64,000 nucleotides of DNA. Source: Frankia sp. AiPa1. GTDB lineage: Bacteria; Actinomycetota; Actinomycetes; Frankiales; Frankiaceae. This document shows, piece by piece, positions 31,397 to 50,411 of this stretch. How positions within the stretch are numbered: the stretch's first letter is position 1; each line of letters starts with the position of its first letter. The position numbers and the translations under genes are program-made. The notes beneath the pieces are model-generated. The model did no database searches. It was not told the origin of the DNA and was given only the letters and a program-made list of their open reading frames with translations. The DNA is taken from positions 1 to 64,000 of the forward strand of contig NZ_JALKFZ020000179.1 of NCBI RefSeq assembly GCF_023243075.1, in the 5' to 3' direction.

Positions 31397-31430
31397 GGAT
31401 AGTAGGGCGCGACGCAGCGACGATGGGGGT

Positions 31431-33365: not shown

Positions 33366-33395
33366 AGACTAGACGCATCCTGGCACCGGGTGCCA
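33366..33395 (-). promoter_or_regulatory. Promoter and TGGCAC-N3-GTGCCA operator for the SDR gene
   Basis: Perfect palindrome CCTGGCACCGGGTGCCAGG (33379-33397). On the minus strand its outer half TGGCAC serves as -35, followed after 18 bp by -10 TAGTCT (33371-33366), leading to the SDR ATG at 33291. Confidence 0.65.
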
Positions 33396-33435
33396 GGGAA
33401 CTGGCCACTGAAGACTGGTTCCGCTGCCGGGACTA

Positions 33436-33464
33436 TGGCACCAGGTGCCATCCCTGGCTAGAGT
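33436..33464 (+). promoter_or_regulatory. Promoter and TGGCAC-N3-GTGCCA operator for the ligase operon
   Basis: Palindrome ATGGCACCAGGTGCCAT, core 33436-33450. Its left half TGGCAC is the -35; 17 bp later stands -10 TAGAGT (33459-33464). The GTG start at 33472 is only 7 bp after the -10, so the transcript is probably leaderless. Confidence 0.7.
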
Positions 33465-33471
33465 GGCTGAC

Positions 33472-35154
33472 GTGTCAGAGTCCGGAACGCTCAGCGGCCC
33501 GCCGTTACTGGAGGCGGCCGACGTCGGTGCGCTCACTCTTGGCCAAGTGCTCACCGATCGGGCCGCGGCATTTCCCGATCATGAGGCGCTGGTCTTCGAC
33601 GACCCGTTGTTCGGTGGCACGGTGCGCTGGACCTATCGCGATCTCACCGATCAGGCTCGGCGGGTCGCGAAGGCGCTTATCGTGTCCGGAACCAGCAAGG
33701 GCACGCACGTCGGGATCCTGATGGGAAACCGCCCTGAAGCCGTGGCCTCGCTGTTCGGGGTGGCGCTCGCCGGGGCGGTCGCTGTGCCCCTCTCGACCTT
33801 CTCGCCTGGGCCCGAGCTGTCCTACCTGATGGCTCACTCCGATGTGGCTGTGCTGCTCGTGCAGACATCGATGGGGCGCCGCCGGTTCGCCGCTGACCTC
33901 GTCGAACTCTGCCCGGCCGCGTCCGGCACGGAGCCGATCCGGGATCCCTCCTACCCGTTCCTCCGCCACGCCGCGGTATTCGGGCCCCCGGCGGATTCCG
34001 CGGGCCTCCAGAGCTGGGACGCCTTCCTCGACCGCGGTGGCGCGGTGAGCGACGCGTTACTCAAGGCGGTCGAGGACCAGGTCGACCCGTCCGACCCTGC
34101 GACCATCATCTACAGCTCGGGGACGACCGACCGTCCCAAAGGGGTTCTCCATTCACATCAGGCGGTCGCACTGCAGTGGTGGATGCAGGCCAGGCTCTTT
34201 GGGCGAAACTCGGCCACACGGGTCTGGAGCCCGCTCCCGCTGTTCTGGACGGCGGGTCTCAACGCCGCGATGGGAGCGACGATAGCGGCGGGCGGAACGT
34301 GGGTCATGCAGGAGCGGTTCGAACCGGGACAGGCATTGCGGCTCCTGGAACGAGAACGGGTGACCGAGCCGCACGCCTTCGCCCACCAGGCGCGGGCACT
34401 CGAGGAGGACCCCCGCTGGCCGGACACGGATCTGTCGTCCTGTACCAAGGTCTTCGGAAAGTCGGTGTTCACCCGCCATCCCACGGTCAGTGGTGACGTG
34501 ACCTGGAACATGCCTGTCGGCTACGGAATGTCGGAGACCTCGTCGTTCTTCACCGGATTCTCGAGCGACACACCGCGGGAAGTGCTGCGGGGCGGTTCCT
34601 ACGGGCGCGTGCTTCCGGGAAGCCAGCTGCGGGTGATCGACCCCGAGACAGGCGAGGTTCTCGGGGTCAGGGAACAGGGCGAGCTCATCGTGCGTGGGCC
34701 GACTCTCATGGAACGGTATGTGAAGCGAACCCGCTCGCAGTGCTTCGATCTCGAAGGCTTCTTCCATACCGGAGATCTGGGCTTCTATGATGAGGACGGC
34801 AACGTTTATTTCTCTGGTCGCCGCACGGAGATGATCAAAACGGGCGGCGCGAACGTGTCCCCGGCGGAAATAGAGCTCCAACTCCACGCCTTCGAACCCG
34901 TCAAACTCGCCCGAGTTATCGGCGTCCAGGACGATCGCCTAGATCAGATCGTGGTTCTCTGTATCGAGTTGAAAGACGGATCGGAGACCACCGAGCTGGA
35001 GATCACTTCGTTCCTGCGGGAGCGGCTGGCAAGCTACAAGGTGCCCAAGAAGGTGATTTTTTTCGCCGCCGGCGAGATTCCCCTCAACCATAGCGGTACC
35101 AAGGTGCAGGATGCTCGACTCTCCTTGATGGCAAAGGATCGGCTGAACCTGTGA
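33472..35154 (+). CDS. Acyl-CoA ligase (AMP-binding)
   Basis: A 560-residue adenylate-forming ligase that activates a carboxylic acid with ATP and CoA. Motifs: IIYSSGTTDRPKGVLHSHQ (P-loop), YGMSETSSFFTGF, FFHTGDLGFYDEDGNVYFSG (Asp of A7), RRTEMIKTGGANVSPAEIE, and the C-terminal Lys in NHSGTKVQ. GTG 33472 is chosen from the leaderless promoter; GTG 33463 is also in frame. First gene of a plus-strand operon with a VOC protein, Rieske oxygenase and two acyl-CoA dehydrogenases, so the substrate is probably an aromatic or alicyclic acid. Confidence 0.93.
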   Translation: MSESGTLSGPPLLEAADVGALTLGQVLTDRAAAFPDHEALVFDDPLFGGTVRWTYRDLTDQARRVAKALIVSGTSKGTHVGILMGNRPEAVASLFGVALAGAVAVPLSTFSPGPELSYLMAHSDVAVLLVQTSMGRRRFAADLVELCPAASGTEPIRDPSYPFLRHAAVFGPPADSAGLQSWDAFLDRGGAVSDALLKAVEDQVDPSDPATIIYSSGTTDRPKGVLHSHQAVALQWWMQARLFGRNSATRVWSPLPLFWTAGLNAAMGATIAAGGTWVMQERFEPGQALRLLERERVTEPHAFAHQARALEEDPRWPDTDLSSCTKVFGKSVFTRHPTVSGDVTWNMPVGYGMSETSSFFTGFSSDTPREVLRGGSYGRVLPGSQLRVIDPETGEVLGVREQGELIVRGPTLMERYVKRTRSQCFDLEGFFHTGDLGFYDEDGNVYFSGRRTEMIKTGGANVSPAEIELQLHAFEPVKLARVIGVQDDRLDQIVVLCIELKDGSETTELEITSFLRERLASYKVPKKVIFFAAGEIPLNHSGTKVQDARLSLMAKDRLNL

Positions 35155-35615
35155 GAACTACCGTGCCCGGCATTTTGCGGTCCGAGGATCTTTTTCACAC
35201 CGGCATCGTCGTCGATGATCTTGAAGCCGCCCGCGAAGAACTCGGCTCTGTGCTCGGCGTGACCTGGTATGAGGGCGGTGCCACTGTTCGGCTGCGCACC
35301 CGCGACGGGACGCGCGCAGTCTCGACCGCCTATGTCCTGTCTCGAGAAGGCACTCACCACGTCGAACTTGTCCAGTCCATCGAGGGAACGCTGTGGACGG
35401 CCGTGACTCCGGGCCACGCTCATCACCTTGGCTACTGGGTCGACGATCTGGCCGGCGCGACCGAGGCCCTGGAGGCGCTCGGGTGGAGCTTCACGGCGTC
35501 GATCGCACTCAGAGACGACCGGCCGCCGATGTGCACGTATCTGCGTGCACGCGGCGGGCTGCATGTGGAGATCGTCGACCGAAACCTGCTGCCGATGCTG
35601 CTTCCGGCGGACTGA
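35151..35615 (+). CDS. VOC family protein (glyoxalase/dioxygenase fold)
   Basis: A 154-residue vicinal-oxygen-chelate protein. His of LFHTGIVVDDLEAA, His of HAHHLGYWVDDL and Glu of LHVEIVDRNLL are placed as metal ligands. GTG start overlaps the ligase stop by 4 bp. In CoA-dependent pathways such proteins act as epimerases, lyases or dioxygenases; function here is open. It is one of four VOC genes in the island. Confidence 0.85.
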   Translation: MRTTVPGILRSEDLFHTGIVVDDLEAAREELGSVLGVTWYEGGATVRLRTRDGTRAVSTAYVLSREGTHHVELVQSIEGTLWTAVTPGHAHHLGYWVDDLAGATEALEALGWSFTASIALRDDRPPMCTYLRARGGLHVEIVDRNLLPMLLPAD

Positions 35616-35652
35616 CGACCCGGTTTCCTGAACGGGTGAAGGAGGAGCGAAC

Positions 35653-37023
35653 GTGACCACATCAGATGCCCCATCCCAGGAGCGCGTGCCCGACGGGATC
35701 GCCCGAGGCCAGCACTTCTACCAGCGATTGCTGGACGACGAGACGCGTCCGGTGCCTGAGAGCCTGCGCGCGGTCTCGGCTGGCTACACGGAGCCGGGCG
35801 GCATCGCGCCGACGCGCTACTTCGACCCGGAGTTCCATCGGCGCGAGGTCGAGAAGGTCTGGGGGCACACCTGGCAGATGGCCTGCCGGGAAGAGCAGAT
35901 TCCCGAGGTCGGGGACTCGATCGTCTACGACATCGCCGACTGGTCGCTCATCGTCCTGCGCACCGCACCGGATGACATCAGGGCGTATCACAACTCCTGC
36001 CTGCACCGGGGTACTCAGCTGCGCACGAAGGGCGGGCCGCTGAGCAACATCCGATGCCCCTTCCACGGGTTCACCTGGAACCTCGACGGGACGCTCAACG
36101 AGATTCCCTCGGCGTGGGACTTCCCCCATATCGACCGAGCCGGCTTCTGTCTTCCCCAGGCCCAGGTCGCGACGTGGGGTGGGTTCGTGTTCGTGAACAT
36201 CGACCGCGACGCTGCCCCTCTCGATGAATATCTCGAGACCCTTCCATGGCACTTCGCGCAGTGGCCGCTGGAGGACCGCTTCCTCAAAGCTCACATCGTG
36301 CGTGTCATGCCCTGTAACTGGAAGGTGGCGCTGGAGGCGTTCATCGAGGCCTACCACACCATGGCGACGCACCCACAGTTGCTGCCGACCGCGGCTGACT
36401 CGCTGAGCGAGTATGACGTCTACGGGCACCACGTGAGCCGAATGATTACTGCTGTCGGTGTGAGCAGCGACCATCTCGAGGATCCGCCAGACGACCTCGC
36501 CATCGTGCGCAGGATGCTGGGATCGCGCGACGCCGAGGTCACCATCGAGCCGGGAGAGAATGCGAGGAGCTCCCTCGCCGCGCGGGTGCGAAAGTCGCTG
36601 TCCGCACGCACCGGGCGCGACTATTCCAGCGTAAGTGACGCGGAGCTGCTCGATGGGATCGAATACCTTCTCTTTCCGAACTTCATGCCCTGGGCGGGTC
36701 TTCTGACCTCGTTTGCCTACCGGTTCCGGCCCAATGGCAACGACCCCGAGTCCTGCGTGATCGACATCATGGTGCTGGAGCCACTTCCCGAGGACGGCGT
36801 CCGACCACCTGCCGCGCCGACGCGCGTTCTGCGCGACGACGAGAGCTGGACCAGTGTGCCCGAGCTCGGAGTGTTCGGTCGCGTCTTCAACCAGGATGGC
36901 GCGGCGTTCGGGCGCATTCAGCGTGGGCTGCGGGCCTCGATCGCGAAGAGTACGACGCTGGCGCTCTACCAGGAAAGCCGGATCCGGCACTTCCATGCCG
37001 CCCTCGAAACGTATATGGCCTGA
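35653..37023 (+). CDS. Rieske non-haem iron oxygenase, alpha subunit
   Basis: A 456-residue ring-hydroxylating oxygenase component. Rieske cluster ligands are C116-x-H118 (SCLHRG) and C135-x2-H138 (CPFHGF). The mononuclear iron site is in NWKVALEAFIEAYHTMATHP, with both His present. Strong ribosome site GAAGGAGGAG before GTG 35653. No beta subunit, ferredoxin or reductase gene is adjacent, so electron supply must come from elsewhere or from a distant gene. Likely hydroxylates the ring of the imported acid or its CoA derivative. Confidence 0.95.
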   Translation: MTTSDAPSQERVPDGIARGQHFYQRLLDDETRPVPESLRAVSAGYTEPGGIAPTRYFDPEFHRREVEKVWGHTWQMACREEQIPEVGDSIVYDIADWSLIVLRTAPDDIRAYHNSCLHRGTQLRTKGGPLSNIRCPFHGFTWNLDGTLNEIPSAWDFPHIDRAGFCLPQAQVATWGGFVFVNIDRDAAPLDEYLETLPWHFAQWPLEDRFLKAHIVRVMPCNWKVALEAFIEAYHTMATHPQLLPTAADSLSEYDVYGHHVSRMITAVGVSSDHLEDPPDDLAIVRRMLGSRDAEVTIEPGENARSSLAARVRKSLSARTGRDYSSVSDAELLDGIEYLLFPNFMPWAGLLTSFAYRFRPNGNDPESCVIDIMVLEPLPEDGVRPPAAPTRVLRDDESWTSVPELGVFGRVFNQDGAAFGRIQRGLRASIAKSTTLALYQESRIRHFHAALETYMA

Positions 37024-37075
37024 GCGTGCAGGGTGACCTCGGTGGGCCCTGTGGTTCCATCCTTGGAGAGTACTG

Positions 37076-38071
37076 ATGGACGTTCGGTTCACTCCTGAAC
37101 AGCGGATTCTTCGCCAGTCCGTCAAACAGGTGATCAATCGGCTCGGCCTGAGCGCGGTCGCCGATCTCGCTGACGAGCAGCGGGCGGCCCGGCTCGACGA
37201 GGCCGTCGAGGAGTCGGACTGGCGGCGCCTTCGGGCACCGGACGAGGCCGGGAACCCCTGGGCCTCGGGCGTCGAGGCCGCGATCGTCGCCGAGGCGCTG
37301 GGGCACGGGCTCGCGGACGTGCCGTTCCTCGGGCCGACGCTCGCCATGGAACTGCGCCGTCTCGCGAAAGCGTCAGCGGCAACTGGCAGGGAGACGGTCG
37401 GGCTTCGCCGGAACCTGTCGGCTCTGGCGTCGCCTGGTGAGCCGGCTGTCGCGATCGATGCGGCTTGCGCCGAGTCGGTCCTGCTGCTCGCGGCAGACGG
37501 CACCCTCGCCTCCGTCAAGCTGCGCGGACAACCCGCCGCGACCGATCTCACCCGGCCCAGCGTGCCGATCCCGACCGCCGAGGCGGTCACAGTTGGCTCA
37601 CTGACTGAAGCTGATCGGCAGCGCTGGATCGCTCTCGCCTTGACGCTCACCACGGCCGATCTCGTCGGCTCGATGCAGGGTGCGCTCGATCTCGCTGTGA
37701 CCTACGCCGGGCAACGCGCGCAGTACGGGAAGCGGATCGGTTCGTTCCAGGCGGTGGCCCACCTGCTCGCCGACGCCGTCGTCCACATCGAGGGGGCCCG
37801 CGCCGCCCTGCTGTACGCGGCGTGGGGCGTCGACGCGCTCGATCCGTGGGACGCCGTCGCGGCGGCGGCCTCGGCCAAGGCCTACGCCGCGCGGGCGGCC
37901 CGGTCGGTCTGCGAGACGTGCATTCAGGTGCACGGCGGCATCGGGAACAGCTGGGAATGCCTCGCGCACGTGTACCTCCGACGCACCCTGCTCGCGACCG
38001 ACGTGCTCGGAGGCGTCGGTCCCAACCTGGCACGCGTGCTCGAACACGTCGGCCTGAAAGGTCGTCTCTGA
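37076..38071 (+). CDS. Acyl-CoA dehydrogenase, short subunit
   Basis: A 331-residue acyl-CoA dehydrogenase-fold protein. The C-terminal half is conserved (YAGQRAQYGKRIGSFQAVAH, CIQVHGGIGNSWECLAHVYL), while the N-terminal half is abbreviated and lacks the SEPxAGSD FAD-binding motif. The stop overlaps the start of the next acyl-CoA dehydrogenase (TGATG). This long/short tandem arrangement matches the alpha2-beta2 dehydrogenases of steroid side-chain breakdown, in which two dissimilar subunits share the active sites. Confidence 0.9.
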   Translation: MDVRFTPEQRILRQSVKQVINRLGLSAVADLADEQRAARLDEAVEESDWRRLRAPDEAGNPWASGVEAAIVAEALGHGLADVPFLGPTLAMELRRLAKASAATGRETVGLRRNLSALASPGEPAVAIDAACAESVLLLAADGTLASVKLRGQPAATDLTRPSVPIPTAEAVTVGSLTEADRQRWIALALTLTTADLVGSMQGALDLAVTYAGQRAQYGKRIGSFQAVAHLLADAVVHIEGARAALLYAAWGVDALDPWDAVAAAASAKAYAARAARSVCETCIQVHGGIGNSWECLAHVYLRRTLLATDVLGGVGPNLARVLEHVGLKGRL

Positions 38072-39201
38072 TGGACTTCAACGATTCCGCCGAGGAGGCC
38101 GACTTCCGCGGGCAGCTGCGAGCCTGGCTCGTTGAGAACAACCCGCACCTGCCAGCGTCGTCCACCTCGGACACGTACTGGGCGAGGCAGCCCGACTGGC
38201 ACCGATCCCTGTACCGAGCCGGATTCTTCGGTCTTTCGTGGCCGGTGCGTTACGGCGGTCACGAAAGACCCACGGTCTACGAGGTGATCGTCGACGAGGA
38301 ACTCGCGGCCGCTGGCGCGCCGCCGCGACCCAACCTGGGCTACCTCGTGCATGCCCTGCTCGAACATGCGAATGACGACATCAGGGACAGGTTCCTGCCG
38401 GATCTCATCAGCGGAGACGCGCGCTGGTGTCAGGGGTTCAGCGAGCCTGACGCCGGCTCCGACCTCGCCGCGCTGCGCACCCGCGCCACGCGCGCGGGCG
38501 ACGACTATGTCGTGACGGGCCACAAGGTCTGGACGAGCTACTCGGACGTGGCCGACTGGTGCCTGCTACTCGCCCGCACCGATCCGCAGGCGCGCAACCA
38601 CAAGGGCCTGTCGGCCTTCGCGATACCCATGGACCAGCCGGCCATCACCCAGCGACCCCTGAAGATGATCAACGGTGTGGCCCGCGAGTTCGGGGAGGTC
38701 ACGTTCGACGCCGCGGTCGTCCCGTCGAGCAACATGATTGGCTCACCCGGCGATGGATGGGCCGTCGCGATGACCGTTCTCGCCCACGAACGCGAACCCC
38801 AGGAGCTGGGCAACGCCAGCCGCTACCGCAAGACCGTCAAGCAGTTGCAGAAACTCGTGCGCGACGATCCCGAGGGCTACGACGCGGAGCAGTTCCGGCA
38901 GCTCGCCTGGGCGACCGTCGAGTCCGACATGCTTGCGCACCTCGTCAGCCGGCGGCTGTCCGAGCGCCTCGACGGCGTGGCGCATGGCGTGGAGGGCTCC
39001 GTCGACAAGCTTCTCATGACCTGGGTCGAGCAGGCCGTGGGCCATGCGGCCGTCGACCTCGCCGGGGCCGCCCAGGACGAGATCGACGCCAGCATGCTTG
39101 CCACCTATCTGTACAGCAGGGCTCAGAGCGTCATGGGCGGCACGGCCCAGATTCAGAGGAACCTCATCGCCCACCGCGTTCTGGGCCTGCCGAGATCCTG
39201 A
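38071..39201 (+). CDS. Acyl-CoA dehydrogenase, long subunit
   Basis: A 376-residue FAD-dependent acyl-CoA dehydrogenase. FAD contacts are visible in WCQGFSEPDAGSDLAALRTR and VVTGHKVWTSYSDVADWCLL; C-terminal motif SVMGGTAQIQRNLIAHRVLG. The start ATG overlaps the partner's stop. The pair would introduce a 2,3-double bond in an acyl-CoA, possibly one with a bulky ring. Last gene of the plus-strand operon. Confidence 0.93.
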   Translation: MDFNDSAEEADFRGQLRAWLVENNPHLPASSTSDTYWARQPDWHRSLYRAGFFGLSWPVRYGGHERPTVYEVIVDEELAAAGAPPRPNLGYLVHALLEHANDDIRDRFLPDLISGDARWCQGFSEPDAGSDLAALRTRATRAGDDYVVTGHKVWTSYSDVADWCLLLARTDPQARNHKGLSAFAIPMDQPAITQRPLKMINGVAREFGEVTFDAAVVPSSNMIGSPGDGWAVAMTVLAHEREPQELGNASRYRKTVKQLQKLVRDDPEGYDAEQFRQLAWATVESDMLAHLVSRRLSERLDGVAHGVEGSVDKLLMTWVEQAVGHAAVDLAGAAQDEIDASMLATYLYSRAQSVMGGTAQIQRNLIAHRVLGLPRS

Positions 39202-39205
39202 TCGA

Positions 39206-39237: not shown

Positions 39238-39246
39238 CGACGACGA

Positions 39247-39699
39247 TCAAGCCAGACTGGCCTCATCCGGGACGGATGTTCCCTTGCCCGTGGGTGCCGG
39301 CCGGGTCGGGTCGTGGGGCATGCCCGAGTCCGCCCCGCCGTGACGACGGAGGAATGTCATCTTCCGGGTCACGAGGCGCCAGCCGGCCTCAGTTCGACGG
39401 TAGGTATCGCTGTACCAACCCATGCGCATCCGGTGGTTGGTCTGGTCGATGAAGAGAAGGGGAACCTCGCCCGTTCCGGAGTCACCGTCGAGATCGAGCA
39501 CAGGTGCTCCGGTGAGGAACAGGCCCTTCGGTGCGGCCTCGACCAGCCGTGGCCAGTCCGCGAGGCTGTACGTGTCACCGAACGCGGAGTAGCTGCCGTC
39601 CGGAGTGACGAGATGCTCGATGATGTGGTGCACATCGCCCTGGGACATTTTGAGCGCGTACACGGCACACAGGTGGATGATCTCCGCGGCGTCGTCCAT
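39247..39699 (-). CDS. NTF2/SnoaL-like protein
   Basis: A 150-residue cone-fold protein: MDDAAEIIHLCAVYALKMSQ, GDVHHIIEHLVTPDGSYSAF, and YSDTYRRTEAGWRLVTRKMT. The fold hosts ketosteroid isomerase-like enzymes, small dioxygenase subunits and dehydratases; none is proven here. ATG 39699 matches the family start; TTG 39723 would overlap the upstream VOC gene. Being in a regulon with a Rieske alpha subunit that lacks a beta subunit, it could serve that role, but this is speculation. Confidence 0.75.
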   Translation of the reverse strand: MDDAAEIIHLCAVYALKMSQGDVHHIIEHLVTPDGSYSAFGDTYSLADWPRLVEAAPKGLFLTGAPVLDLDGDSGTGEVPLLFIDQTNHRMRMGWYSDTYRRTEAGWRLVTRKMTFLRRHGGADSGMPHDPTRPAPTGKGTSVPDEASLA

Positions 39700-39715
39700 C
39701 GGCGGTATCACCAGA

Positions 39716-40129
39716 TCAACCAACGACCTTGGCGCGGCGTTCGAATGCGTCGCGGTCGGCCTGCGGCCGCAGCTTGTTCAGCGCGAACACCACACAGAAC
39801 TCCATGCCGGCCGGGTCCCGCATGATCACCCAGCGCCCGGGATGGTCCGCCCACGACGCGTCGACGACGGTGGCGCCGCAGTCGACGAGGCGCCTGACCT
39901 CGCCCTCGAGATCGTCCGTGTGAATGTCGAAATGGACGCCGGCCGAGCCAGGGCCGACATCCTGAACAACAATGCGGTTGGGATTATCCGCATCCTCGAG
40001 AATATGGTAGGCCGGGAGTTTGGTGGCATGTGCCTTCGCGCCCAACGCCGCCGACCAGAATGCCACCGTCTGGTCACGGAACTCAGCCGGGGCGTCAATG
40101 ACGAAGGTACTCAACAGAATACGATGCAT
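39716..40129 (-). CDS. VOC family protein
   Basis: A 137-residue two-module glyoxalase-fold protein: AFWSAALGAKAHATKLPAYH, GVHFDIHTDDLEGEVRRL, and WVIMRDPAGMEFCVVF. The ATG at 40129 follows AAAGGA. Close in style to the VOC protein at 48734-49111 (..DPEGNEFCLY). Precise reaction unknown. Confidence 0.85.
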   Translation of the reverse strand: MHRILLSTFVIDAPAEFRDQTVAFWSAALGAKAHATKLPAYHILEDADNPNRIVVQDVGPGSAGVHFDIHTDDLEGEVRRLVDCGATVVDASWADHPGRWVIMRDPAGMEFCVVFALNKLRPQADRDAFERRAKVVG

Positions 40130-40249
40130 CGCAGTCCTTTCAAGCTCACTCGCGGGCGTCGGCCCTCCGGTGGCGACGCCCATGCATAATCCAGCTCACC
40201 TGGTGGTGCTTGGCCCCGCTGATCGTGCCCTCTGGCTACCCGACGGTGG

Positions 40250-41005
40250 TCAGGCACCGGCTCCTCCGTCAACAGCGATGGCCTGACCAGTGAGGTATGC
40301 CGGCGCGTCGGTGCACAGCCAGACCGCCGTTTCGGCGATCTCGCCCGCTTCGGCGACGCGACCGGACGGATTGGCGCGAACGAGAGACTCGACTGTCTCC
40401 TCCGACATGGCTGCCCGGAACATCGGCGTATCGACGGTCCCCGGACACAGGGCATTCACTCGCACTCCGCGGGAGGCGTACTCGCGAGCCGCCACCCGCG
40501 TGAGCCCGACAACTCCATGTTTCGCGGCGGTGTAGGCGGAGACCGTCGCAGCCGCCCGGATTCCCGCGACCGAGGCGCAGTTCACGATCGCGCCGCCTCC
40601 CGATACCAACAGCGCAGGCAGTTCGTAACGCATGCAGGACCAGGTTCCCGTGAGATCGATTGCGATGACGCGGTTCCAGTTCTCCAGACTCGACTCGGCA
40701 ATGAGCTTGCCCTGCTCGCCGTCGATGCCCGCGGCGTTGAAGGCCGCGTCCAACCGTCCGTAGGCGGCCACGGTGGCGTCAACGGCGGCCCGCACTGTGT
40801 CGTCGTCCGCCACATCGCAGCGCACATAGATGCATTCTCCCAGCGCGCCGAGTTCGCCCTGGGCCTCCTGCCCTGCCTGCTCGTTCACGTCGGCGAGCAC
40901 AGTGGCATACCCGCGGCGCACAAACGCCTCCGCCGCCGCCCGACCGATACCCGAACCGGCACCAGTGACAAAAGCGACTCTCCTCGACGCGGCCTCGCCC
41001 GTCAC
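40250..41005 (-). CDS. Short-chain dehydrogenase/reductase
   Basis: A 251-residue classical SDR: VAFVTGAGSGIGRAAAEAFV, DAAFNAAGIDG, NCASVAGIRAAATVSAYTAA followed by Lys (Ser-Tyr-Lys), VNALCPGTVDTPMFRAAM, and AYLTGQAIAVDGG. Its GTG start overlaps the amidohydrolase stop by 4 bp. Probably oxidises a hydroxyl made earlier in the pathway. A 120-bp gap separates it from the VOC gene downstream. Confidence 0.92.
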   Translation of the reverse strand: MTGEAASRRVAFVTGAGSGIGRAAAEAFVRRGYATVLADVNEQAGQEAQGELGALGECIYVRCDVADDDTVRAAVDATVAAYGRLDAAFNAAGIDGEQGKLIAESSLENWNRVIAIDLTGTWSCMRYELPALLVSGGGAIVNCASVAGIRAAATVSAYTAAKHGVVGLTRVAAREYASRGVRVNALCPGTVDTPMFRAAMSEETVESLVRANPSGRVAEAGEIAETAVWLCTDAPAYLTGQAIAVDGGAGA

Positions 41006-42303: not shown

Positions 42304-42304
42304 C

Positions 42305-43282: not shown

Positions 43283-43323
43283 GTTGCTGCTCCTGTGGCT
43301 CGTGAAACTCAGGTAGGTGACGA

Positions 43324-44979
43324 TCAGTGAATCTTTGTGGTGCCTCGGTCCACTTTCTGTGGCTCGGCGATCCAGGATGCGATGATCTCCCTGAGTTCGG
43401 GCAGCCGGACCTTTCCTGTCTCCGTGCGGGGGACGTCATCGTGCGTGATGAACGCGACGCGCCGTGGGATCTTGAAGCTGGACAACCGTTCACGCAGCAT
43501 CGCACGTATACCTTCGGCTGTCGGGCTCGTACCCGGCGCCGGGACGACCGCCGCGACGACGATCTCGCCGAACTCCGGATCCGGGAGGCCCGCGACCAAC
43601 GCCAGGTCCACCTCAGGCAGCGCGCGCAGCGCCGCCTCCACCTCAAGGCGAGACACATTGGCCGAACTCGTCTTGATCATGTCTCCGGTACGGCCGACGA
43701 GGTAGGCGTAGCCGTCCGAGTCGATACGCACCAGGTCCTTGGTGGGGTAGAACCCGTCGGCCGTGAACACCGTGCGCCGGTCGATCTTGTAGAAGCCGGT
43801 CATCAACGCACCCCCGCGCAGCTGAAGCTCGCCCACCTCGCCGGGGGGAACTTCAGCGCCGGTGTCCGGGTTGACAACCCGCCGTTCTATCCCGTTCACG
43901 CCACGCCCGCAGGCGCCGGCCTTGTCATCTGGCATGCGCTGGTTGATGGATTCGGCGCTATGCATCGAGAAGCTTTCGGACATCCCCAGCAGGTTGGCAC
44001 GCAGGGTTGGGGGAATGAGTTCACCGTTTTCCCGGCGCGGTGGCGCACCCATGCCGCGGATCGCGTCGACGTCGATGCCCCGGGCGATCGCGGCCGCTCT
44101 CAGCTTTGGCAGGACGTGCCAGACGACGACGTACGTGACGTTGTGCCGCTCGATCATCTCGACGGCGTCCGCGATGTCGGGCGAGCGCGGGTAGATCAGC
44201 GTTCCGCCGGTACTCAGGACCTGTAGCGCCGCCGCGATACCGCCCATCCAGAAGGCAGGAAGCAGGCACAGGGTGCGGTCCGCGTCGGTCAGCAGGAAGT
44301 ACCGGGCGAGAGCCCGCGGCTGACGCGCCACCGCCCACTGCCCGTGAACCACCGCCTTGGGGGCCGCGGTGCTCCCCGAGGTATAGACGACGAACGCGTC
44401 GTCGGCGGGCGAGACCTCACGCTCCACAGCCGCGAGCAGGTCGCCGTCAGGAGCGTCGGGCAGCGTGGCGCGTGCGAGCAGATCGCTGACCGGTGCGGCC
44501 CAGGAGAGCCCACCACCGTCCTGGAGCCACACGGAGCGCAGGTGCGGGGCGCACTGCAGACGGAGCGCACCGGCGGTGCCTCCCCCCAGCCCTGGAAGTG
44601 CCGCGGTCAGGATCTCGGCGAAGTCACGGCGCAGGAATCGGCGCACGCCGATCAGGATCTGCGCGTCGCTGGTCCGGAGGATGTGGGCCAGCTCGGGCGG
44701 CGTCGTCAGAGTGCTGATCGGAGTGACCAGGGCCCCGATCCGCAGTGCCGCGTAGAAGGTGGTCAGCCACAGGGCGCCATCGGGTGCGAGCAGAGCGATC
44801 CGAGTGCCCTTGCCGACGCCACTGGCGAGCAGTGCCCGCGCCATCTCGCCTGATCGGCGCTCCAGTTGGCGATAGGTCAGCACCTCCTCGGCGTGGATCA
44901 GGGCCGGGTGTTCGCCGCGCGACGCGACCGTCTCGGCGAGGAGAACTGGAAAAGTCGCGGGGTGATCGGTCGGATGCAT
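43324..44979 (-). CDS. Acyl-CoA ligase (AMP-binding), second copy
   Basis: A 551-residue adenylate-forming ligase: AFVVYTSGSTAAPKAVVHGQ, LGMSESFSMHSAESIN, DGFYPTKDLVRIDSDGYAYL, VGRTGDMIKTSSANVSRLE and the C-terminal TGKVRLPEL catalytic Lys. Distinct from the ligase at 33.5 kb in the glycine-rich loop (STAAPKA instead of TTDRPKG). Two ligases suggest one acts on the parent acid and the other on a later acid intermediate. Confidence 0.93.
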   Translation of the reverse strand: MHPTDHPATFPVLLAETVASRGEHPALIHAEEVLTYRQLERRSGEMARALLASGVGKGTRIALLAPDGALWLTTFYAALRIGALVTPISTLTTPPELAHILRTSDAQILIGVRRFLRRDFAEILTAALPGLGGGTAGALRLQCAPHLRSVWLQDGGGLSWAAPVSDLLARATLPDAPDGDLLAAVEREVSPADDAFVVYTSGSTAAPKAVVHGQWAVARQPRALARYFLLTDADRTLCLLPAFWMGGIAAALQVLSTGGTLIYPRSPDIADAVEMIERHNVTYVVVWHVLPKLRAAAIARGIDVDAIRGMGAPPRRENGELIPPTLRANLLGMSESFSMHSAESINQRMPDDKAGACGRGVNGIERRVVNPDTGAEVPPGEVGELQLRGGALMTGFYKIDRRTVFTADGFYPTKDLVRIDSDGYAYLVGRTGDMIKTSSANVSRLEVEAALRALPEVDLALVAGLPDPEFGEIVVAAVVPAPGTSPTAEGIRAMLRERLSSFKIPRRVAFITHDDVPRTETGKVRLPELREIIASWIAEPQKVDRGTTKIH

Positions 44980-45539
44980 CAGTGTCGGGCGATTTCGGTA
45001 GTCCCCGCACCGGGAACGACAATGGAGTCGGACCCGTCCCAGGTACGCGCGGCCGCGCGCATCTTCGAGAACCAGGCCTCTCGCGTCTTGCTCGGTTCCA
45101 GAAGTTCGATCATGAACCCCAGGGTTGGGCTGGTGTCAATCCAGCACGTTCGGCTCGTGCCGGTGACCCCTTCGAAGGCCAGGGCGGCTCCGGCCGCGAG
45201 GTAGGCGTCGCGCTCGGCTTCGTAGTCGGTGGGGGTGATGGCCAGGTGGTGCAGGCCGCCCTCACCCGCGCGGAACACGTCGCGAAACACTCCAGGATCG
45301 TCATTGTCCTGGGACACAAGCTCGACCTGGACATCGCCGGCGTAGGCGATCGCGGCGCTGACCGCGGGGAAGGTCGCCGGCTGGCCTCGGTGGTGGCCGT
45401 CCGTGAACGGTACCTCGTCGAACCAGAAGAACGGACCGACGCCGGCGGACCTGACCCACGCGTCAATGGCTGCACGAAGGTCGGGCACGACCCAGCACAC
45501 CTGCATGAAACTGCTGTTGGTTAAAAGAGCAGGAATCAC
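44979..45539 (-). CDS. VOC family protein
   Basis: A 186-residue glyoxalase-fold protein: QVCWVVPDLRAAIDAWVRSA, GVGPFFWFDEVPF, VQVELVSQDNDDPGVFRDVF, GGLHHLAITPTDYEAERDAY, and LGFMIELLEPSKTRE. The pattern resembles methylmalonyl-CoA epimerase-like VOC proteins. GTG 45539 follows AAAGGG and lies 11 bp after the upstream stop. Its stop overlaps the ligase ATG (TGATG). Confidence 0.86.
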   Translation of the reverse strand: MIPALLTNSSFMQVCWVVPDLRAAIDAWVRSAGVGPFFWFDEVPFTDGHHRGQPATFPAVSAAIAYAGDVQVELVSQDNDDPGVFRDVFRAGEGGLHHLAITPTDYEAERDAYLAAGAALAFEGVTGTSRTCWIDTSPTLGFMIELLEPSKTREAWFSKMRAAARTWDGSDSIVVPGAGTTEIARH

Positions 45540-45550
45540 CGGTTTCCCTT

Positions 45551-46408
45551 TCAGCTGATGACCGGGAAACGTTCGCCACCGAACGGCTGCCATGGCGTCA
45601 TATCGCTTGAGTCGAAGTTGGGGCAGGGTGAGCCGTTCCAGCAGGCGTCGGCCGGCTGGGTGACGAGGAGGTAGGTCCACCGGGGGTGGTCGGTCACATT
45701 GGGCCCGCTGCCGTGGATGGTCAGGTGGGTGTGGACGGTGATGTCGCCGAGCTCATAGGTCATGTGCTCGGACATCTCAAGCCGGCGGAGTTCGGGGAAG
45801 ACGTCCAGGGCGTCTCCGTCGCCGTAGCAGGTGTAGTCGCCCAGCACGCCCTCGCGGTGGGAGCCGCTGACGAATGACATCGTTCCGGCGGGCGGCCCGC
45901 AGGGCTCCAGCGGGATCCAGAAGGTCATGCCGCCGGACCGGTCGACGGCGAAGGTGATGAAGTCCTGGTGGTAGGCGGTCGGCCCGTTACCGCCGTGTCG
46001 TGCCGTCTTCTCCGCGGGTAGCTTGGGTACGAAGAAGTCGGAGTAGTAGCGGACGTCGACGCCGGACCCGTCCGTGCTGCGCCGTCGCTGCAGCAGCTTC
46101 GCGCTCCTGCCGATTTCGAAGATCAGGGGACGCAGTATGGGGTGGGCCAGACCGAAGCTGCGCTGGGCGTTGAAGTACGAGAGACCGGGCTTACCCTCGG
46201 TGACGGCAGCTTCCAGGACGGGGGAGAGGGGGTTGCTGTCGGCGTCCTCTCCCATCACCTCGCGGGCGAGATCGAGCATGGAGCGCAGGTACTGCGGATC
46301 CACGAAGCGCTTCAGCTTGACCCAGCCGAATTCGCGGAGATGCTCGATCTCCTCTTCTGTCACCGACCGGCATGGCGTTGACGGTAAGGTCGCCGGGTTT
46401 GCAGTCAT
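45551..46408 (-). CDS. Phytanoyl-CoA dioxygenase family protein (Fe(II)/2-oxoglutarate)
   Basis: A 285-residue double-stranded beta-helix oxygenase. The HxD iron motif is in TAYHQDFITFAVD, GTMSFVSGSHREG follows, and the distal His is in THLTIHGSGPNVTDHPRWTY with the 2-oxoglutarate-binding Arg nearby. Members hydroxylate CoA esters or small molecules next to a carboxyl. A third oxygenase type in the island, besides the Rieske and P450 enzymes. Confidence 0.9.
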   Translation of the reverse strand: MTANPATLPSTPCRSVTEEEIEHLREFGWVKLKRFVDPQYLRSMLDLAREVMGEDADSNPLSPVLEAAVTEGKPGLSYFNAQRSFGLAHPILRPLIFEIGRSAKLLQRRRSTDGSGVDVRYYSDFFVPKLPAEKTARHGGNGPTAYHQDFITFAVDRSGGMTFWIPLEPCGPPAGTMSFVSGSHREGVLGDYTCYGDGDALDVFPELRRLEMSEHMTYELGDITVHTHLTIHGSGPNVTDHPRWTYLLVTQPADACWNGSPCPNFDSSDMTPWQPFGGERFPVIS

Positions 46409-46441
46409 CTCGATCTCCTCAGCGTGCGCGCGTCTGGGCGA

Positions 46442-47812
46442 CTAGGCGAAGATTCCCGGGCCATTGCGGAATGCGTAGAGGCCGACGGCCTCGTCCTCAG
46501 CGGGAGTAAACGGGTTGGCGATCTCGTCGGGTGTGGGGCCGATGCGGTCCGCGACTGCCCGCAGCTTGGCGTGGTCGAGCCCGTAGACCTCGATCGCCGT
46601 TTCGCCGAGATATCGGCGGGTGTGCTGTGGGGCGATGTCCCAGAACGTAGACCGTATCGCCTCCCGGGTGTGAGGCCAGGTGCCTTCGGCATGTGGGTAG
46701 TCGTCTCCCCACATCGTGTTCGCCACGAGGTCGTGTTCGACGCCGAACTTCGCTTCCCAGTTGGCCATGAAGCTTGCGCCGATGAAGCAGTTGCGGTGGA
46801 AGTACGTGGAGGGCTTCTCGGGCAATGTCGCACGCAGCGCCGATCCACCGGGCCCGGAGTAGAGGCCGTCCATATCGGCCATGACCTGCGGCGCCCAGTC
46901 CATCCACTGTTCGGTCATCACGAGTCTCAGGGCGGGATGCCGGTTGAAGACGCCGGCGAGGATCATCACCCAGACCCCCCGGCGGGTACGCCACGTGGTT
47001 TCCATCATGTACATGGACTGGGCACCGGGCCCCTTGTAGGGGTAATGCTCCCCACCGCCACCATGCGTGTTGAGCGAGAGCCCCGTCTCCTCACACACCG
47101 CCCAGAGCGGTTCCCAGACGGGGTCATTGAGCATCGGCAGGTCACTGCGAGGAGCCGGCAGGTTGATCCCTTTCAGGCCTGCTTCGGCCGCCCACTCGAC
47201 TTCACGCACACAGGCTTCCGGGTCGGAAATCGGTATGTGCGCGATGCCGGCATGGCGTTCTGGGGCCTCGGAGACGAAACCAGCGAGCCACCGGTTGTAG
47301 ATCCGGACACCGGCTGGCTCGAGATGGTTGTAGCTGGAGTTCCCCCAGGAGATCAGGCCGGTGGTTGAGAACGGGATGGACTGGCCGTTGAGGCCTCCGT
47401 GGTAGATAACGGAGGCTGCGGTGCCCGCCCTGTCCATGTCGGCGATGCGTGCCGCATGATCCTGCAGGCCGGGAACCAGGCTCGCCTCGTAGCTGCGCTG
47501 GAGAAAGCCCTGGTCGACCTGGTCGGCGTTACGGATCCCCGCGACCTTGCCGAACGCGGCGGCCTGCTCCTTACCCAGCTCCGCGCGGGACCGGCCGAGC
47601 GACCAGCTCTCCTCCTCACCGGGCTTCGTCGCCTCCGACGACCGCCACGAGAGCAGGCCATGACCATCCATCTCCGCGACGAACCGATCGAAGTCATCGA
47701 GGTGCTTGGCCTCGCAGTAGTCCCGCAACTGGCCCGCGACCGACGGGCCGACGTGGCTGTCAGTCGATACCACGATGTAGCGCTCGCTCTGTTCGGATGC
47801 GACCTGCGGCAT
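46442..47812 (-). CDS. Amidohydrolase 2 family protein (decarboxylase/hydrolase type)
   Basis: A 456-residue TIM-barrel protein. Family features: YIVVSTDSHVGPSVAGQLRD near the N-terminus, GLKGINLPAPRSDLPMLNDP, TGLSLNTHGGGGEHYPYKGP, RLVMTEQWMDWAPQVMADMD, and NTMWGDDYPHAEGTWPHTRE. These match large actinobacterial amidohydrolase-2 proteins, some of which hydrolyse cyclic CoA esters or decarboxylate aromatics. ATG 47812 follows GGAAGGGG. First gene of the nine-gene minus-strand operon; promoters with the shared operator lie at 47839-47867 and 47916-47944. Confidence 0.9.
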   Translation of the reverse strand: MPQVASEQSERYIVVSTDSHVGPSVAGQLRDYCEAKHLDDFDRFVAEMDGHGLLSWRSSEATKPGEEESWSLGRSRAELGKEQAAAFGKVAGIRNADQVDQGFLQRSYEASLVPGLQDHAARIADMDRAGTAASVIYHGGLNGQSIPFSTTGLISWGNSSYNHLEPAGVRIYNRWLAGFVSEAPERHAGIAHIPISDPEACVREVEWAAEAGLKGINLPAPRSDLPMLNDPVWEPLWAVCEETGLSLNTHGGGGEHYPYKGPGAQSMYMMETTWRTRRGVWVMILAGVFNRHPALRLVMTEQWMDWAPQVMADMDGLYSGPGGSALRATLPEKPSTYFHRNCFIGASFMANWEAKFGVEHDLVANTMWGDDYPHAEGTWPHTREAIRSTFWDIAPQHTRRYLGETAIEVYGLDHAKLRAVADRIGPTPDEIANPFTPAEDEAVGLYAFRNGPGIFA

Positions 47813-47838
47813 GACGCCCCTTCCGCCCGGTTGAGAGC

Positions 47839-47867
47839 AGTGTAGTCTGAGCTGGCACTCAGTGCCA
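47839..47867 (-). promoter_or_regulatory. Operator-promoter 1 of the nine-gene operon
   Basis: Palindrome TGGCACTCAGTGCCA (47853-47867). On the minus strand its outer TGGCAC is the -35, and 17 bp later is -10 TACACT (47844-47839). Confidence 0.7.
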
Positions 47868-47915
47868 CCACTGCGGCACCGACACGCTCGGCAGTGGGTA
47901 AGCTCGACGTTGAGC

Positions 47916-47944
47916 ATCATAGGTTGACATGGCACTCAGTGCCA
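47916..47944 (-). promoter_or_regulatory. Operator-promoter 2 between the operon and tetR
   Basis: An identical palindrome TGGCACTCAGTGCCA (47930-47944). On the minus strand TGGCAC as -35, 17-bp spacer and -10 TATGAT (47921-47916). On the plus strand TTGACA (47924-47929) abuts it, so it could also control tetR. Confidence 0.7.
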
Positions 47945-48107
47945 AGCGTCTCAGACAAATCTGCTTTTGACATGTCGGAGTCGACACAGGGTGAGGACGC
48001 ACAGCTGGGGACCACCGGTGTCGAGGGATGATAGGAAGACCCTGCTCACGGACCGGCCTCGCTCGTGCGGTGAGGATCCGGGCTGTGGCGCGAGACGGAA
48101 GTGCTCT

Positions 48108-48737
48108 GTGACCCACACACCCCAACAGGCATCGGTCGCGGCCATCGAGAAGGCCGCGCTGGAGATGATCGCCGCGCGCGGCTTCCAGGACGTCACGGTC
48201 GAGGAGATCGCTAACGCTGCCGGCGTCTCCCGGCGAACCTTCTTCCGATACTTCGCGTCGAAAAACGACATACTGTTCGGAAATTTCGCCGAGCTCCTGC
48301 AGGAGCTCGATGACTGGTTCACGTCGGTGCCAGATGATCGACCCATGTTCGATGCGATTGCCGAGGGGGTGATGCGTTTCAACCGCGCGAACACTGACGG
48401 CCCGGTCGTCCATCGACAGCGCATGGAGCTGATCATGTTCACTCCCGCATTGAAGGCGAACGCCTCGCTCCGAAACGCCGAGTGGCTGGCGGTGATCGCA
48501 CGGTACACGGCACGCCGGCTCGACGAACCAGAGGATGCGCTAGGACCGCAGCTCATCGGCCATGTCTCACTGGGCGCTGCGAACGCCGCCTACGAGCGTT
48601 GGCTGCGTGCCCCCGGCGCTGACCTCAACGAGCTCGTGCGTCGTGCTTTCCGCATGGCGCGCACGCTAGCGGAACTGGATATTACGACAACCCAGTCCAG
48701 TTGGCGACTGGACCGGGAGCCGTTCAAAGGCAGCTAA
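48108..48737 (+). CDS. TetR family regulator, probable repressor of the island
   Basis: A 209-residue regulator. Its helix-turn-helix is AALEMIAARGFQDVTVEEIA then NAAGVSRRTFFRYFASKNDI, a form shared with acyl-CoA-binding and mycofactocin-type TetR regulators. The ligand domain shows VVHRQRMELIMFTPALKANA. GTG 48108 follows a weak GGAAG site; the in-frame leader back to 47967 is unlikely to be translated. Divergent from the nine-gene operon with operators between. A CoA-ester intermediate is a plausible inducer. The 3' end overlaps the VOC gene on the other strand by 4 bp. Confidence 0.9.
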   Translation: MTHTPQQASVAAIEKAALEMIAARGFQDVTVEEIANAAGVSRRTFFRYFASKNDILFGNFAELLQELDDWFTSVPDDRPMFDAIAEGVMRFNRANTDGPVVHRQRMELIMFTPALKANASLRNAEWLAVIARYTARRLDEPEDALGPQLIGHVSLGAANAAYERWLRAPGADLNELVRRAFRMARTLAELDITTTQSSWRLDREPFKGS

Positions 48738-49111
48738 GAAGCATCGTTGCTCATGTCCGCAGGCAGGAGGTAAAGGCAGAACTCGTTGCCTTCCGGGTCA
48801 GCCATGCATCGCCAGGAGAACGTCTCCAGCTCGTGTGTCTTCCCATGTTCGATCCACGTCCCGCCCAGCGCGAGGACTCGCTGCGTCTCGGCCTCGAGGT
48901 CGTCGACGACGAGGTCGAAATGTGCTCGGTTCTTGCCCGTCTTGGCCTCGGGGACCCGCTGCAGGACGATCATCAGACCTTCGCGGTTCGGCGCCATCGC
49001 GTGATAGCGCCCCTCGTCGTAGGTCAGCAGCGTCTCGACTCCTTGGAGTGCGCCGTAGAAGTCGGCGAGACGTACTGGATCTTGACTATCGAGAACGATG
49101 TATGCAGGCAT
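48734..49111 (-). CDS. VOC family protein
   Basis: A 125-residue glyoxalase-fold protein: YIVLDSQDPVRLADFYGALQ, RAHFDLVVDDLEAETQRVLA and CMADPEGNEFCLYLLP. ATG 49111 follows GAGAGAGAGG; an in-frame upstream codon would fall inside the palindrome. The start is 16 bp from the 47-bp palindrome. Confidence 0.87.
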   Translation of the reverse strand: MPAYIVLDSQDPVRLADFYGALQGVETLLTYDEGRYHAMAPNREGLMIVLQRVPEAKTGKNRAHFDLVVDDLEAETQRVLALGGTWIEHGKTHELETFSWRCMADPEGNEFCLYLLPADMSNDAS

Positions 49112-49127
49112 CAGGACCTCTCTCTCT

Positions 49128-49174
49128 GATCTCTGGACAACGATGGCACTGCGTGCCATCGTTGTCCAGAGATC
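49128..49174. promoter_or_regulatory. 47-bp perfect palindrome centred on the regulon operator
   Basis: Two exact 22-bp arms flank TGC. The inner part is TGGCAC-TGC-GTGCCA (49144-49158); the outer arms begin GATCTCTGGACAACGA. Much longer than the other operators. It lies in the VOC leader, so its RNA would fold into a very stable stem just before the ribosome site. Confidence 0.8.
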
Positions 49175-49208
49175 GCGAACCCCCCGTACCCTTGATAGGG
49201 GCCGCCTA

Positions 49209-49256
49209 GCATGCCACCCGCCGGACCGGCCGCTCCGAGAGTGGCATGCAGTGCCG
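49209..49256. promoter_or_regulatory. Degenerate operator and inverted repeat
   Basis: GCATGCCAC (49209-49217) and GTGGCATGC (49241-49249) are perfect inverted repeats 23 bp apart. The right copy overlaps TGGCATGCAGTGCCG (49242-49256), an imperfect match to the regulon palindrome. The remaining stretch to 49456 holds no gene; TAGGAT at 49354-49359 is a possible -10 for the aldolase gene. Confidence 0.45.
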
Positions 49257-49456
49257 TTCCGCCGCTGCCATCACCACCTCAACCGCCGGCCGTGGCGTCC
49301 GCCTCCAGGACTGGAGCGGCCTTCGTGCGCTGCACGGCGCACGTCACGTGCGGTAGGATCCGCAACCGCATTGTGGAGTAGTGCGTAGCGACTTTCGACT
49401 GCGGCCGGCTCGTCTCGTCCCGTCCGTCCTGCACAGTGCCACCGGAGGCATTCGCC

Positions 49457-50257
49457 ATGACAGCTGCCCCGTTAGACGGCGCGCTCGTGTCGCCTGCGAT
49501 CGAGGGCCAATGGCCCCGTCCCGAACCGGCGCGCACCCTTGAGCAGGAGCGGCTGCACCGCAAGCAGCGGCTCGCCGGTGCGTACCGGATCTTTGGTCAG
49601 CTCGGATACGGCGAAGGCCTCGCAGGGCACATCACCGCCCGCGACCCGGAGTTGACCGACCACTTCTGGGTGAACCGCTTCGGGGTGGATTTCCGCCGGA
49701 TCAGCGTTTCGAGCCTACTTCTGGTGAACGCCGAGGGCGAGATCGTGGAGGGGCAGCCGCCGTTGAACACCGCGGCGTTCGCGATCCACTCGGAAGTCCA
49801 CGCGGCCCGGCCGGAGGTGGTCGCCGCCGCACACGCTCATTCCCTTTACGGCAAGGCACTATCCGCGCTCGGCGAGCCACTCTATCCGATCACGCAGGAC
49901 GCGTGCGCGTTCCACCAGGAACACGCGATCTTCGACGACTTCACCGGGGTGGTCCTCAGCACCAACGAGGGCGAGCGCATCGCCAGCGCTCTCGGCTCGG
50001 GCAAGCTGGCTATCCTCGCCAATCACGGACTGTTGACTGTCGGCACCACCGTGGAGTCGGCGGCCTACTGGTTCATCGCTGCCGAGCGAGCCGCCCAGGT
50101 CCAGCTTCTCGCACAGGCAGCAGGAAAGCTGCGGCTACTCGACGACGTGACGGCCAAGCGCACAGCCAGGCAGGTAGGTGGCGACACCTTGGCGCGCTGG
50201 GGGTTCGAAGCGTACTACCAACTCATCGTCAAGGAGCAGCCCGATCTACTTGACTAG
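49457..50257 (+). CDS. Class II aldolase/adducin family protein
   Basis: A 266-residue protein of the larger class II aldolase branch: LAGAYRIFGQLGYGEGLAGH, ITARDPELTDHFWVNRFGVD, AAHAHSLYGKALSALGEPLY (metal-binding HAH), and KLAILANHGLLTVGTTVESA (third His). ATG 49457 follows GGAGG at 8 bp; GTG 49436 is an alternative. May split or decarboxylate a hydroxy-acid intermediate. Confidence 0.88.
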   Translation: MTAAPLDGALVSPAIEGQWPRPEPARTLEQERLHRKQRLAGAYRIFGQLGYGEGLAGHITARDPELTDHFWVNRFGVDFRRISVSSLLLVNAEGEIVEGQPPLNTAAFAIHSEVHAARPEVVAAAHAHSLYGKALSALGEPLYPITQDACAFHQEHAIFDDFTGVVLSTNEGERIASALGSGKLAILANHGLLTVGTTVESAAYWFIAAERAAQVQLLAQAAGKLRLLDDVTAKRTARQVGGDTLARWGFEAYYQLIVKEQPDLLD

Positions 50258-50396
50258 GCCTTGTTCGGCCGAAGAACTCCAAGCCGCGCACCGCCATCCG
50301 CGGCTCGCGCCAGAGAAATCAATTCAGATTGTCCGCTGCTGGGGCCTCCGAAGCCGGCGATGACGCTAGCCGACAACACCATTTCTGGACGACCAG

Positions 50397-50411
50397 TGGC
50401 ATCTCGTGCCA
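50397..50411. promoter_or_regulatory. Regulon operator upstream of the P450 gene
   Basis: TGGCATCTCGTGCCA, one mismatch from the consensus. A possible -10 TAAGAT lies at 50427-50432, but the spacing differs from the other four promoters, so promoter geometry is less certain here. Confidence 0.6.

What the first reader, a model, noticed from the sequence alone, without database searches (positions are those of the whole stretch)
33379..50411. A shared palindrome, TGGCAC-N3-GTGCCA, marks a probable TetR regulon
Seen directly: the 15-bp palindrome stands at 33381, 33436, 47853, 47930 and 49144 (perfect arms) and at 50397 (one mismatch), plus a weaker copy at 49242. All lie upstream of genes of one catabolic island. 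At 33436, 47853 and 47930 the outer half TGGCAC is followed by exactly 17 bp and a TAnnnT -10 (TAGAGT, TACACT, TATGAT), and at 33381 by 18 bp and TAGTCT. The operator therefore also serves as the -35 element. Inference: the TetR protein at 48108-48737 is the repressor and covers the -35 in every case.
Basis: partly seen in the sequence, partly recalled or inferred. Interest (0 to 1): 0.82.

Follow-up and report, generated by a model that had tools for sequence, protein, structure and literature searches.

The report
Mycofactocin-type repressor runs catabolic island
A catabolic gene island in a Frankia-like actinobacterium, probably spread by gene transfer, carries its own relative of the mycofactocin repressor and the same kind of DNA docking site at most of its promoters, so the two gene systems may talk to each other.

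Summary
TGGCAC-N3-GTGCCA is perfect at the five stated places, with one mismatch at 50397 and two at 49242. These five are the only perfect copies in the 6.98-Mb draft genome (about 0.65 expected). The motif heads six transcription units of a catabolic island. At four sites the outer TGGCAC lies 17-18 bp from a TAnnnT -10, a layout kept in 14 of 16 promoter instances across four related islands.

New here: the TetR protein is a relative of MftR, the mycofactocin repressor (205 bits to TIGR03968, below its 224.9-bit cut-off). The published footprint of Mycobacterium smegmatis MftR contains TGGCACTCGATGCCA, the same palindrome but for one letter. The motif also marks many mft promoters of this family, and one-mismatch copies stand at this genome's own mftA and mftD. 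So the TetR-motif pairing rests on a characterised relative and on footprinting, not only on proximity. The island is in 4 of 35 genomes of the family and looks horizontally transferred. Cross-talk with the host's MftR is plausible but untested.

The parts
33381..33395 (-). Operator B, perfect, upstream of the short-chain dehydrogenase gene (32359-33291); outer half as -35, TAGTCT (33366-33371) 18 bp away
   Evidence: TAGTCT/TAGTGT at the same spacing in 4 of 4 islands
33436..33450 (+). Operator A, perfect, upstream of acyl-CoA synthetase 1; TAGAGT (33459-33464) at 17 bp; proposed GTG start 33472 lies 7 nt after it, so the mRNA may be leaderless
   Evidence: TAGAGT at 17 bp in 4 of 4 islands, a GTG 7-8 nt after it
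47853..47867 (-). Operator C, perfect, proximal to the amidohydrolase operon; TACACT (47839-47844) at 17 bp
   Evidence: 3 of 4 islands keep a TAnnnT there; the other three islands have a 1-mismatch operator
47930..47944 (-). Operator D, perfect, distal to the amidohydrolase operon; TATGAT (47916-47921) at 17 bp; promoter points left
   Evidence: 3 of 4 islands keep a TAnnnT there
49144..49158 (-). Operator E, perfect, 32 bp upstream of the glyoxalase-family gene (start 49111); core of a longer palindrome 49128-49174 with 22-bp arms
   Evidence: perfect motif in 4 of 4 islands
49242..49256 (+). Operator F, two mismatches, between the glyoxalase-family and class II aldolase genes
   Evidence: present in 4 of 4 islands with 1-2 mismatches; in L007 the gene after it is the P450
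50397..50411 (+). Operator G, one mismatch, upstream of the P450 gene (proposed GTG 50455)
   Evidence: identical in L006, absent upstream of the P450 in L008, replaced by F in L007, so 2 of 4 islands
48108..48737 (+). TetR-family regulator, MftR relative (TetR_N plus TetR_C_14, the MftR C-terminal domain); start codon not proven
32359..33291 (-). Short-chain dehydrogenase, target of operator B
33472..39201 (+). Probable operon: acyl-CoA synthetase, glyoxalase-family protein, Rieske oxygenase, two acyl-CoA dehydrogenases; target of operator A
39247..47812 (-). Probable operon read from 47812 leftwards: amidohydrolase, PhyH, glyoxalase-family, acyl-CoA synthetase, enoyl-CoA hydratase, amidohydrolase, short-chain dehydrogenase, glyoxalase-family, SnoaL-like; target of operators C and D
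48734..49111 (-). Glyoxalase-family protein, target of operator E
49460..50257 (+). Class II aldolase, probable target of operator F
50455..51660 (+). Cytochrome P450, probable target of operator G

Best explanation
The island is a regulon of its own TetR-family repressor, a diverged MftR paralogue. As a dimer it binds the 15-bp palindrome TGGCAC-N3-GTGCCA in front of six transcription units. At four promoters the palindrome's outer half doubles as the -35 element, so the bound repressor blocks RNA polymerase directly. An inducer, most likely a CoA thioester made by the island's own acyl-CoA synthetases, releases it. Shown by computation: motif, positions, conservation, family and family-wide operator. 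Shown by others in a relative: MftR binds this kind of palindrome and lets go on long-chain acyl-CoA. Inferred: binding and repression by this protein, and the inducer.
For: Five of five perfect motif copies in the draft genome lie in the island (0.65 expected). The TetR hits TIGR03968 MftR at 205.5 bits and Pfam TetR_C_14 'MftR C-terminal domain'; the closest solved chain is MftR 8x0a, E 3.4e-33. The M. smegmatis MftR footprint TCCATTC-TGGCACTCGATGCCA-TATAT holds the same palindrome with one letter different (PMC8728441 section 4). De novo census of perfect 6-3-6 dyads in about 500 bp before 52 MftR-family genes: half-site TGGCAC 17 times in 13 of 52 loci, the next 6 times, all at the start of the gene match. 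Before mftC in the family, 9 of 30 loci have a perfect copy and 7 a 1-mismatch copy. Relaxed motif TGRCACN3GTGYCA: 8, 8, 5 and 9 copies in the four island genomes, 0-5 in the other 31, 0-3 for the reversed control. Operators A-F lie at equivalent places in 4 of 4 islands, G in 2 of 4; -10 spacing kept in 14 of 16 promoter instances. R29, R47, R48 and an acid at 38 in 4 of 4 island TetRs.
Against: No binding or expression data exist for this protein. It fails the MftR equivalog cut-off and sits on a long branch (0.9). In the MftR paper, single-letter changes in the palindrome did not stop MftR binding in vitro (section 5), so the letters alone do not fix the partner. Position 38 is Glu, not the Asp whose Ala change abolished MftR binding; R29 is kept in only 41 of 55 other family members and D38 in 43 of 55, so their retention is modest support. 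His68 and Ser67 of the MftR effector site are Leu and Glu/Gly in the island proteins, but His68 is present in only 15 of 55 others, so this says little about the ligand. 11 of 30 mftC loci show no copy with at most 2 mismatches or could not be judged. tetR has no clear operator-linked promoter on its own strand. Three of seven sites have no -10 at the expected spacing.
Confidence: 0.85

Rival explanations
1. The host's own MftR (G000:C138, 267 bits, above the cut-off) binds the island operators as well, alone or in competition, so the island is wired into mycofactocin control.
For: Same operator class at the genome's own mftA and mftD promoters, one letter different in one half-site; same recognition-helix core RRTFFRYFASKND in both proteins; published MftR tolerates single-letter changes in the palindrome.
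Against: The island carries its own regulator in 4 of 4 genomes; the mft copies here are 1-mismatch variants while five island copies are perfect, although G008, without the island, also has a variant. It would add to, not replace, the main explanation.
Confidence: 0.3
2. A different regulator, such as the MmyB-like protein at 31425-32285, binds the palindrome.
For: It lies next to the island in this window.
Against: tblastn found no relative of it in the fetched stretches of the three other islands (only two of them, L069 and L072, reach past the dehydrogenase gene), and the motif tracks MftR-family and mft genes elsewhere.
Confidence: 0.03
3. The palindromes are chance or a repeat unrelated to regulation.
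For: Loosely matched copies show no excess: 44 against 42.1 expected in the window at up to 3 mismatches; 309 against 496 for the reversed control in the genome at up to 2.
Against: Five perfect copies against 0.006 expected in 64 kb, all in promoter gaps; positions kept across related islands while flanks diverge.
Confidence: 0.01

Closest known systems
MftR (TIGR03968), repressor of mycofactocin biosynthesis, with operator Omft
   Same: TetR_N plus TetR_C_14 domains; same 15-bp palindrome (one letter different in the M. smegmatis site); recognition-helix core RRT[FL]FRY
   Different: Scores 205.5 against a cut-off of 224.9; sits in a catabolic island without mft genes; seven sites in one island, whereas two were found in this genome's mft cluster; palindrome serves as -35 at four promoters, whereas at mftA in this genome it fills the spacer just before a TACACT and at mftD it follows a TATAGT
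KstR / FadR-type TetR repressors of catabolic regulons that respond to acyl-CoA (recalled, not tested beyond weak HMM hits)
   Same: Working style: TetR repressor of catabolic operons, relieved by a CoA thioester (recalled)
   Different: Only weak HMM similarity (21.8 and 32.1 bits); operator differs (recalled)

Membership tests
TetR family | TetR_N DNA-binding domain above Pfam cut-off | tested here: met
   56.7 bits against 24
TetR_C_14 (MftR C-terminal domain) family | PF17754 above cut-off | tested here: met
   100.8 bits against 22.7
MftR equivalog (TIGR03968) | score over the curated cut-off of 224.9 bits | tested here: not met
   205.5 bits in the window, 216.2 in L007; so it is called an MftR paralogue, not MftR. 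Caution: L016, which is mft-linked, also scored 222.1 on a partial sequence
MftR equivalog (TIGR03968) | linked to, or sole candidate regulator of, an mft cluster | tested here: not met
   own mft cluster is on another contig (L065) and a second gene over the cut-off exists at G000:C138
MftR-type operator | TGGCAC-N3-(G/A)TGCCA palindrome | tested here: met
   against the footprint quoted in PMC8728441
MftR-type regulation | binds the operator in vitro; released by long-chain acyl-CoA | not testable with these tools
   shown for M. smegmatis MftR in the one paper read

The most novel reading that the evidence does not exclude
A horizontally moving catabolic island has captured a mycofactocin-type repressor and kept its operator code, so on entering a new host its operators and those of the resident mft cluster are read by two repressors. 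The island's breakdown pathway and synthesis of the redox cofactor would then be co-controlled through a shared DNA code and possibly a shared acyl-CoA signal.
Probability: 0.3. Interest if true: 0.6.

Novelty: new member of a known kind. Interest (0 to 1): 0.42.

Why it matters
It gives a concrete, testable regulon for a catabolic island of unknown substrate, links it to a repressor with a published operator and effector class, and offers a natural case of two paralogous repressors that may share one operator in one cell. It also suggests that MftR-type operators can mark genes outside mycofactocin clusters, so genome scans for mycofactocin regulons by operator alone can mislead.

Tried and rejected
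Insulation idea (mft operators degenerate when the island is present): the window's genome has 1-mismatch mft operators and 9 of 30 mftC loci, all without the island, have perfect ones, but G008 without the island also has a 1-mismatch copy; not supported. Idea that loss of His68 proves a new ligand: His68 is present in only 15 of 55 other family members (L131 was left out because it lacks the RRT anchor used for numbering); rejected as evidence. Idea that the island needs mycofactocin through its short-chain dehydrogenases: the two score 163 and 166 bits against 300 for the mycofactocin-coupled subfamily; not supported. A third lead outside the island and mft cluster, TGACACCGGGTGCCA at G000:C165, lies inside an open reading frame; treated as chance. 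Paper searches for the motif with TetR (15 of 30 listed) and for Frankia TetR operators (10 of 24 listed) gave nothing relevant in the listings.

Limits of the counts. In one search the G006 locus had only 122 bp upstream and could not be judged, and the G027 mftC locus was not fetched. In one search the same scan was run without turning minus-strand loci; it was replaced. In one search, L059 and L014 were dropped from the tree because of stop symbols in the aligned piece. L006-L008 (named records) and L035-L037, L068-L073 (handles) are the same three islands, judged by equal contig lengths and coordinates, so they are not independent. The loci include close relatives and count sequences, not events.
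Full report
What was checked. Loosely matched copies show no excess: 44 against 42.1 expected in the window at up to three mismatches, and 309 against 496 for the reversed control in the genome at up to two. The case therefore rests on perfect and near-perfect copies. A first-order model expects 0.006 perfect copies in 64 kb and 0.65 in the genome. The draft genome (6.98 Mb, 198 contigs, 88.5% complete) holds exactly five, all in this island. With one mismatch there are 13 further places; two are in the island (44107 and 50397) and two in the mft cluster.

Anatomy. The island runs from about 32.3 kb to 51.7 kb: short-chain dehydrogenases, two acyl-CoA synthetases, a Rieske oxygenase, two acyl-CoA dehydrogenases, enoyl-CoA hydratase, PhyH, amidohydrolases, glyoxalase-family proteins, class II aldolase and P450. 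The seven sites head six transcription units (units inferred from gene order and strand): the dehydrogenase at 33291, the synthetase operon at 33472, the nine-gene amidohydrolase operon at 47812 (two sites), the glyoxalase-family gene at 49111, the aldolase at 49460 and the P450 at 50455. The substrate is not known.

Promoters. At 33381(-), 33436(+), 47853(-) and 47930(-) the outer TGGCAC is 17-18 bp from TAnnnT. With the local TAnnnT rate of 14 in 1982 positions, four of seven sites by chance has a probability near 1e-4 under a simple independence assumption. In four islands the -10 is kept in 4 of 4, 4 of 4, 3 of 4 and 3 of 4 cases. The upstream half TGGCAC is unchanged in 16 of 16 of these promoter instances; the downstream half is GTGCCA in 11 and GTGTCA in 5 of 16. 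That asymmetry fits a dual role, but TGACA would be the better -35 match (recalled consensus TTGACA), so it is not proof. At 33436 a GTG lies 7-8 nt after the -10 in all four, which suggests a leaderless mRNA. Both the 47853 and 47930 promoters face the amidohydrolase; none was found for tetR.

Regulator. The TetR has TetR_N and TetR_C_14 domains and scores 205.5 bits to the MftR equivalog, below the 224.9 cut-off; the same genome has another gene over it, 267 bits, at G000:C138. The best solved-structure match is MftR 8x0a. In a tree of 58 rows the four island proteins form a 100/100 clade on a branch of 0.9, while the host MftR sits with other MftRs of its genus. The deeper position of the island clade is not resolved (45/12).

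Operator of the family. Mendauletova and Latham (PMC8728441; outline with abstract and sections 4, 5, 6 and 7 read) footprinted MftR on TCCATTCTGGCACTCGATGCCATATAT and describe T-N2-GGCA-N5-TGCC-N2-A. This contains the window's palindrome with one letter different (ATGCCA for GTGCCA). They also report, data not shown, that single-letter changes in it did not stop binding in vitro. In a census that did not presuppose the motif, perfect 6-3-6 dyads in about 500 bp upstream of 52 family genes had TGGCAC as the commonest half: 17 dyads in 13 of 52 loci, 13 of them in 10 of the 48 loci outside the island clade. Upstream of mftC, 30 loci out of 31 genomes with mftC were examined: 9 have a perfect copy, 7 a 1-mismatch copy, 3 a 2-mismatch copy, 10 none, and 1 could not be judged. 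In this genome's own mft cluster the copies are TGACACTCGGTGCCA before mftA and TGGCACTCGGTGTCA before mftD. The relaxed motif TGRCACN3GTGYCA occurs 8, 8, 5 and 9 times in the four island genomes and 0-5 times in the other 31 of the family; the reversed control gives 0-3.

Spread. Proteins over 80% identical to the TetR occur in 4 of 35 genomes of the family and in the same 4 of 393 sampled genomes of the class. That the window's own genus is Frankia is my inference; no call names it. Other relatives examined are mostly mft-linked: 15 of 19 fetched stretches also carry mftC. Gene order is largely kept, with exceptions: in Pseudofrankia asymbiotica the P450 (64% identical) and aldolase are swapped and the two acyl-CoA dehydrogenases were not found, and its contig ends before the first dehydrogenase gene. 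Operators A-F are present in 4 of 4 islands, G in 2 of 4. Island proteins are 80-98% identical between this genome and G020 (EUN1f), whereas mftC and mftD are 68%. Only 1 of the 13 genomes of this genus in the search has the island. Together this points to horizontal transfer; no transfer machinery was looked for.

Mechanism. Shown here: operators, their conservation, promoter overlap at four sites, and the family of the regulator. Shown elsewhere for a relative: binding of this kind of palindrome and release by myristoyl- and oleoyl-CoA. Inferred: the island TetR represses by covering the -35 and is released by a CoA thioester of the pathway. DNA-contact residues of MftR (R29, R48, and Arg47 of the proposed salt bridge) are kept in 4 of 4 island proteins and Asp38 is Glu; among 55 other members R29 is kept in 41 and D38 in 43. 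His68 is Leu, but that position varies across the family (His in 15 of 55), so the ligand stays open (numbering by anchoring the RRT motif at 47-49).

Novelty. Searches of the open library for MftR with mycofactocin and operator (1 paper), the motif with TetR (15 of 30 listed), MftR alone (30 of 98 listed) and Frankia TetR operators (10 of 24 listed) showed no description of this island or of an MftR paralogue controlling a catabolic island in the listings seen; subscription journals are mostly absent from that library. The system is a new member of a known kind, with an interesting open question about cross-talk.

Noticed in passing
window 49128-49174: The motif at 49144 is the core of a palindrome with perfect 22-bp arms just upstream of the glyoxalase-family gene; as RNA it folds at -55.7 kcal/mol (z -7.4). 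Arms identical in L006, changed in step on both sides in L008, no longer fully complementary in L007; a 17-base piece was found elsewhere in four genomes only with 2 mismatches. Possible second function (leader hairpin or tandem binding).
   Followed up: partly
window 33459-33474 and related islands: A GTG start for the synthetase gene lies 7-8 nt after the -10 in four islands, which suggests a leaderless transcript.
   Followed up: partly
G000:C138 (L063, L064): In this genome mftR is on another contig than the mft cluster (C112) and has no motif copy with at most 1 mismatch in the 19.7-kb stretch fetched.
   Followed up: partly
window 47973-47986: A separate dyad TGTCG-N4-CGACA lies between operator D and tetR; by eye it is only partly kept in L006. 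It could bear on tetR's own control.
   Followed up: no
L083 and L093, upstream of mftC: In two genomes of the family the mftA operator block appears twice in tandem, 26 bp apart.
   Followed up: no
L071 end and G027:C63:2201-2269: In Pseudofrankia asymbiotica the same pair of perfect motifs stands at the end of contig C118 and near the start of C63, perhaps a duplicated or overlapping contig end.
   Followed up: no
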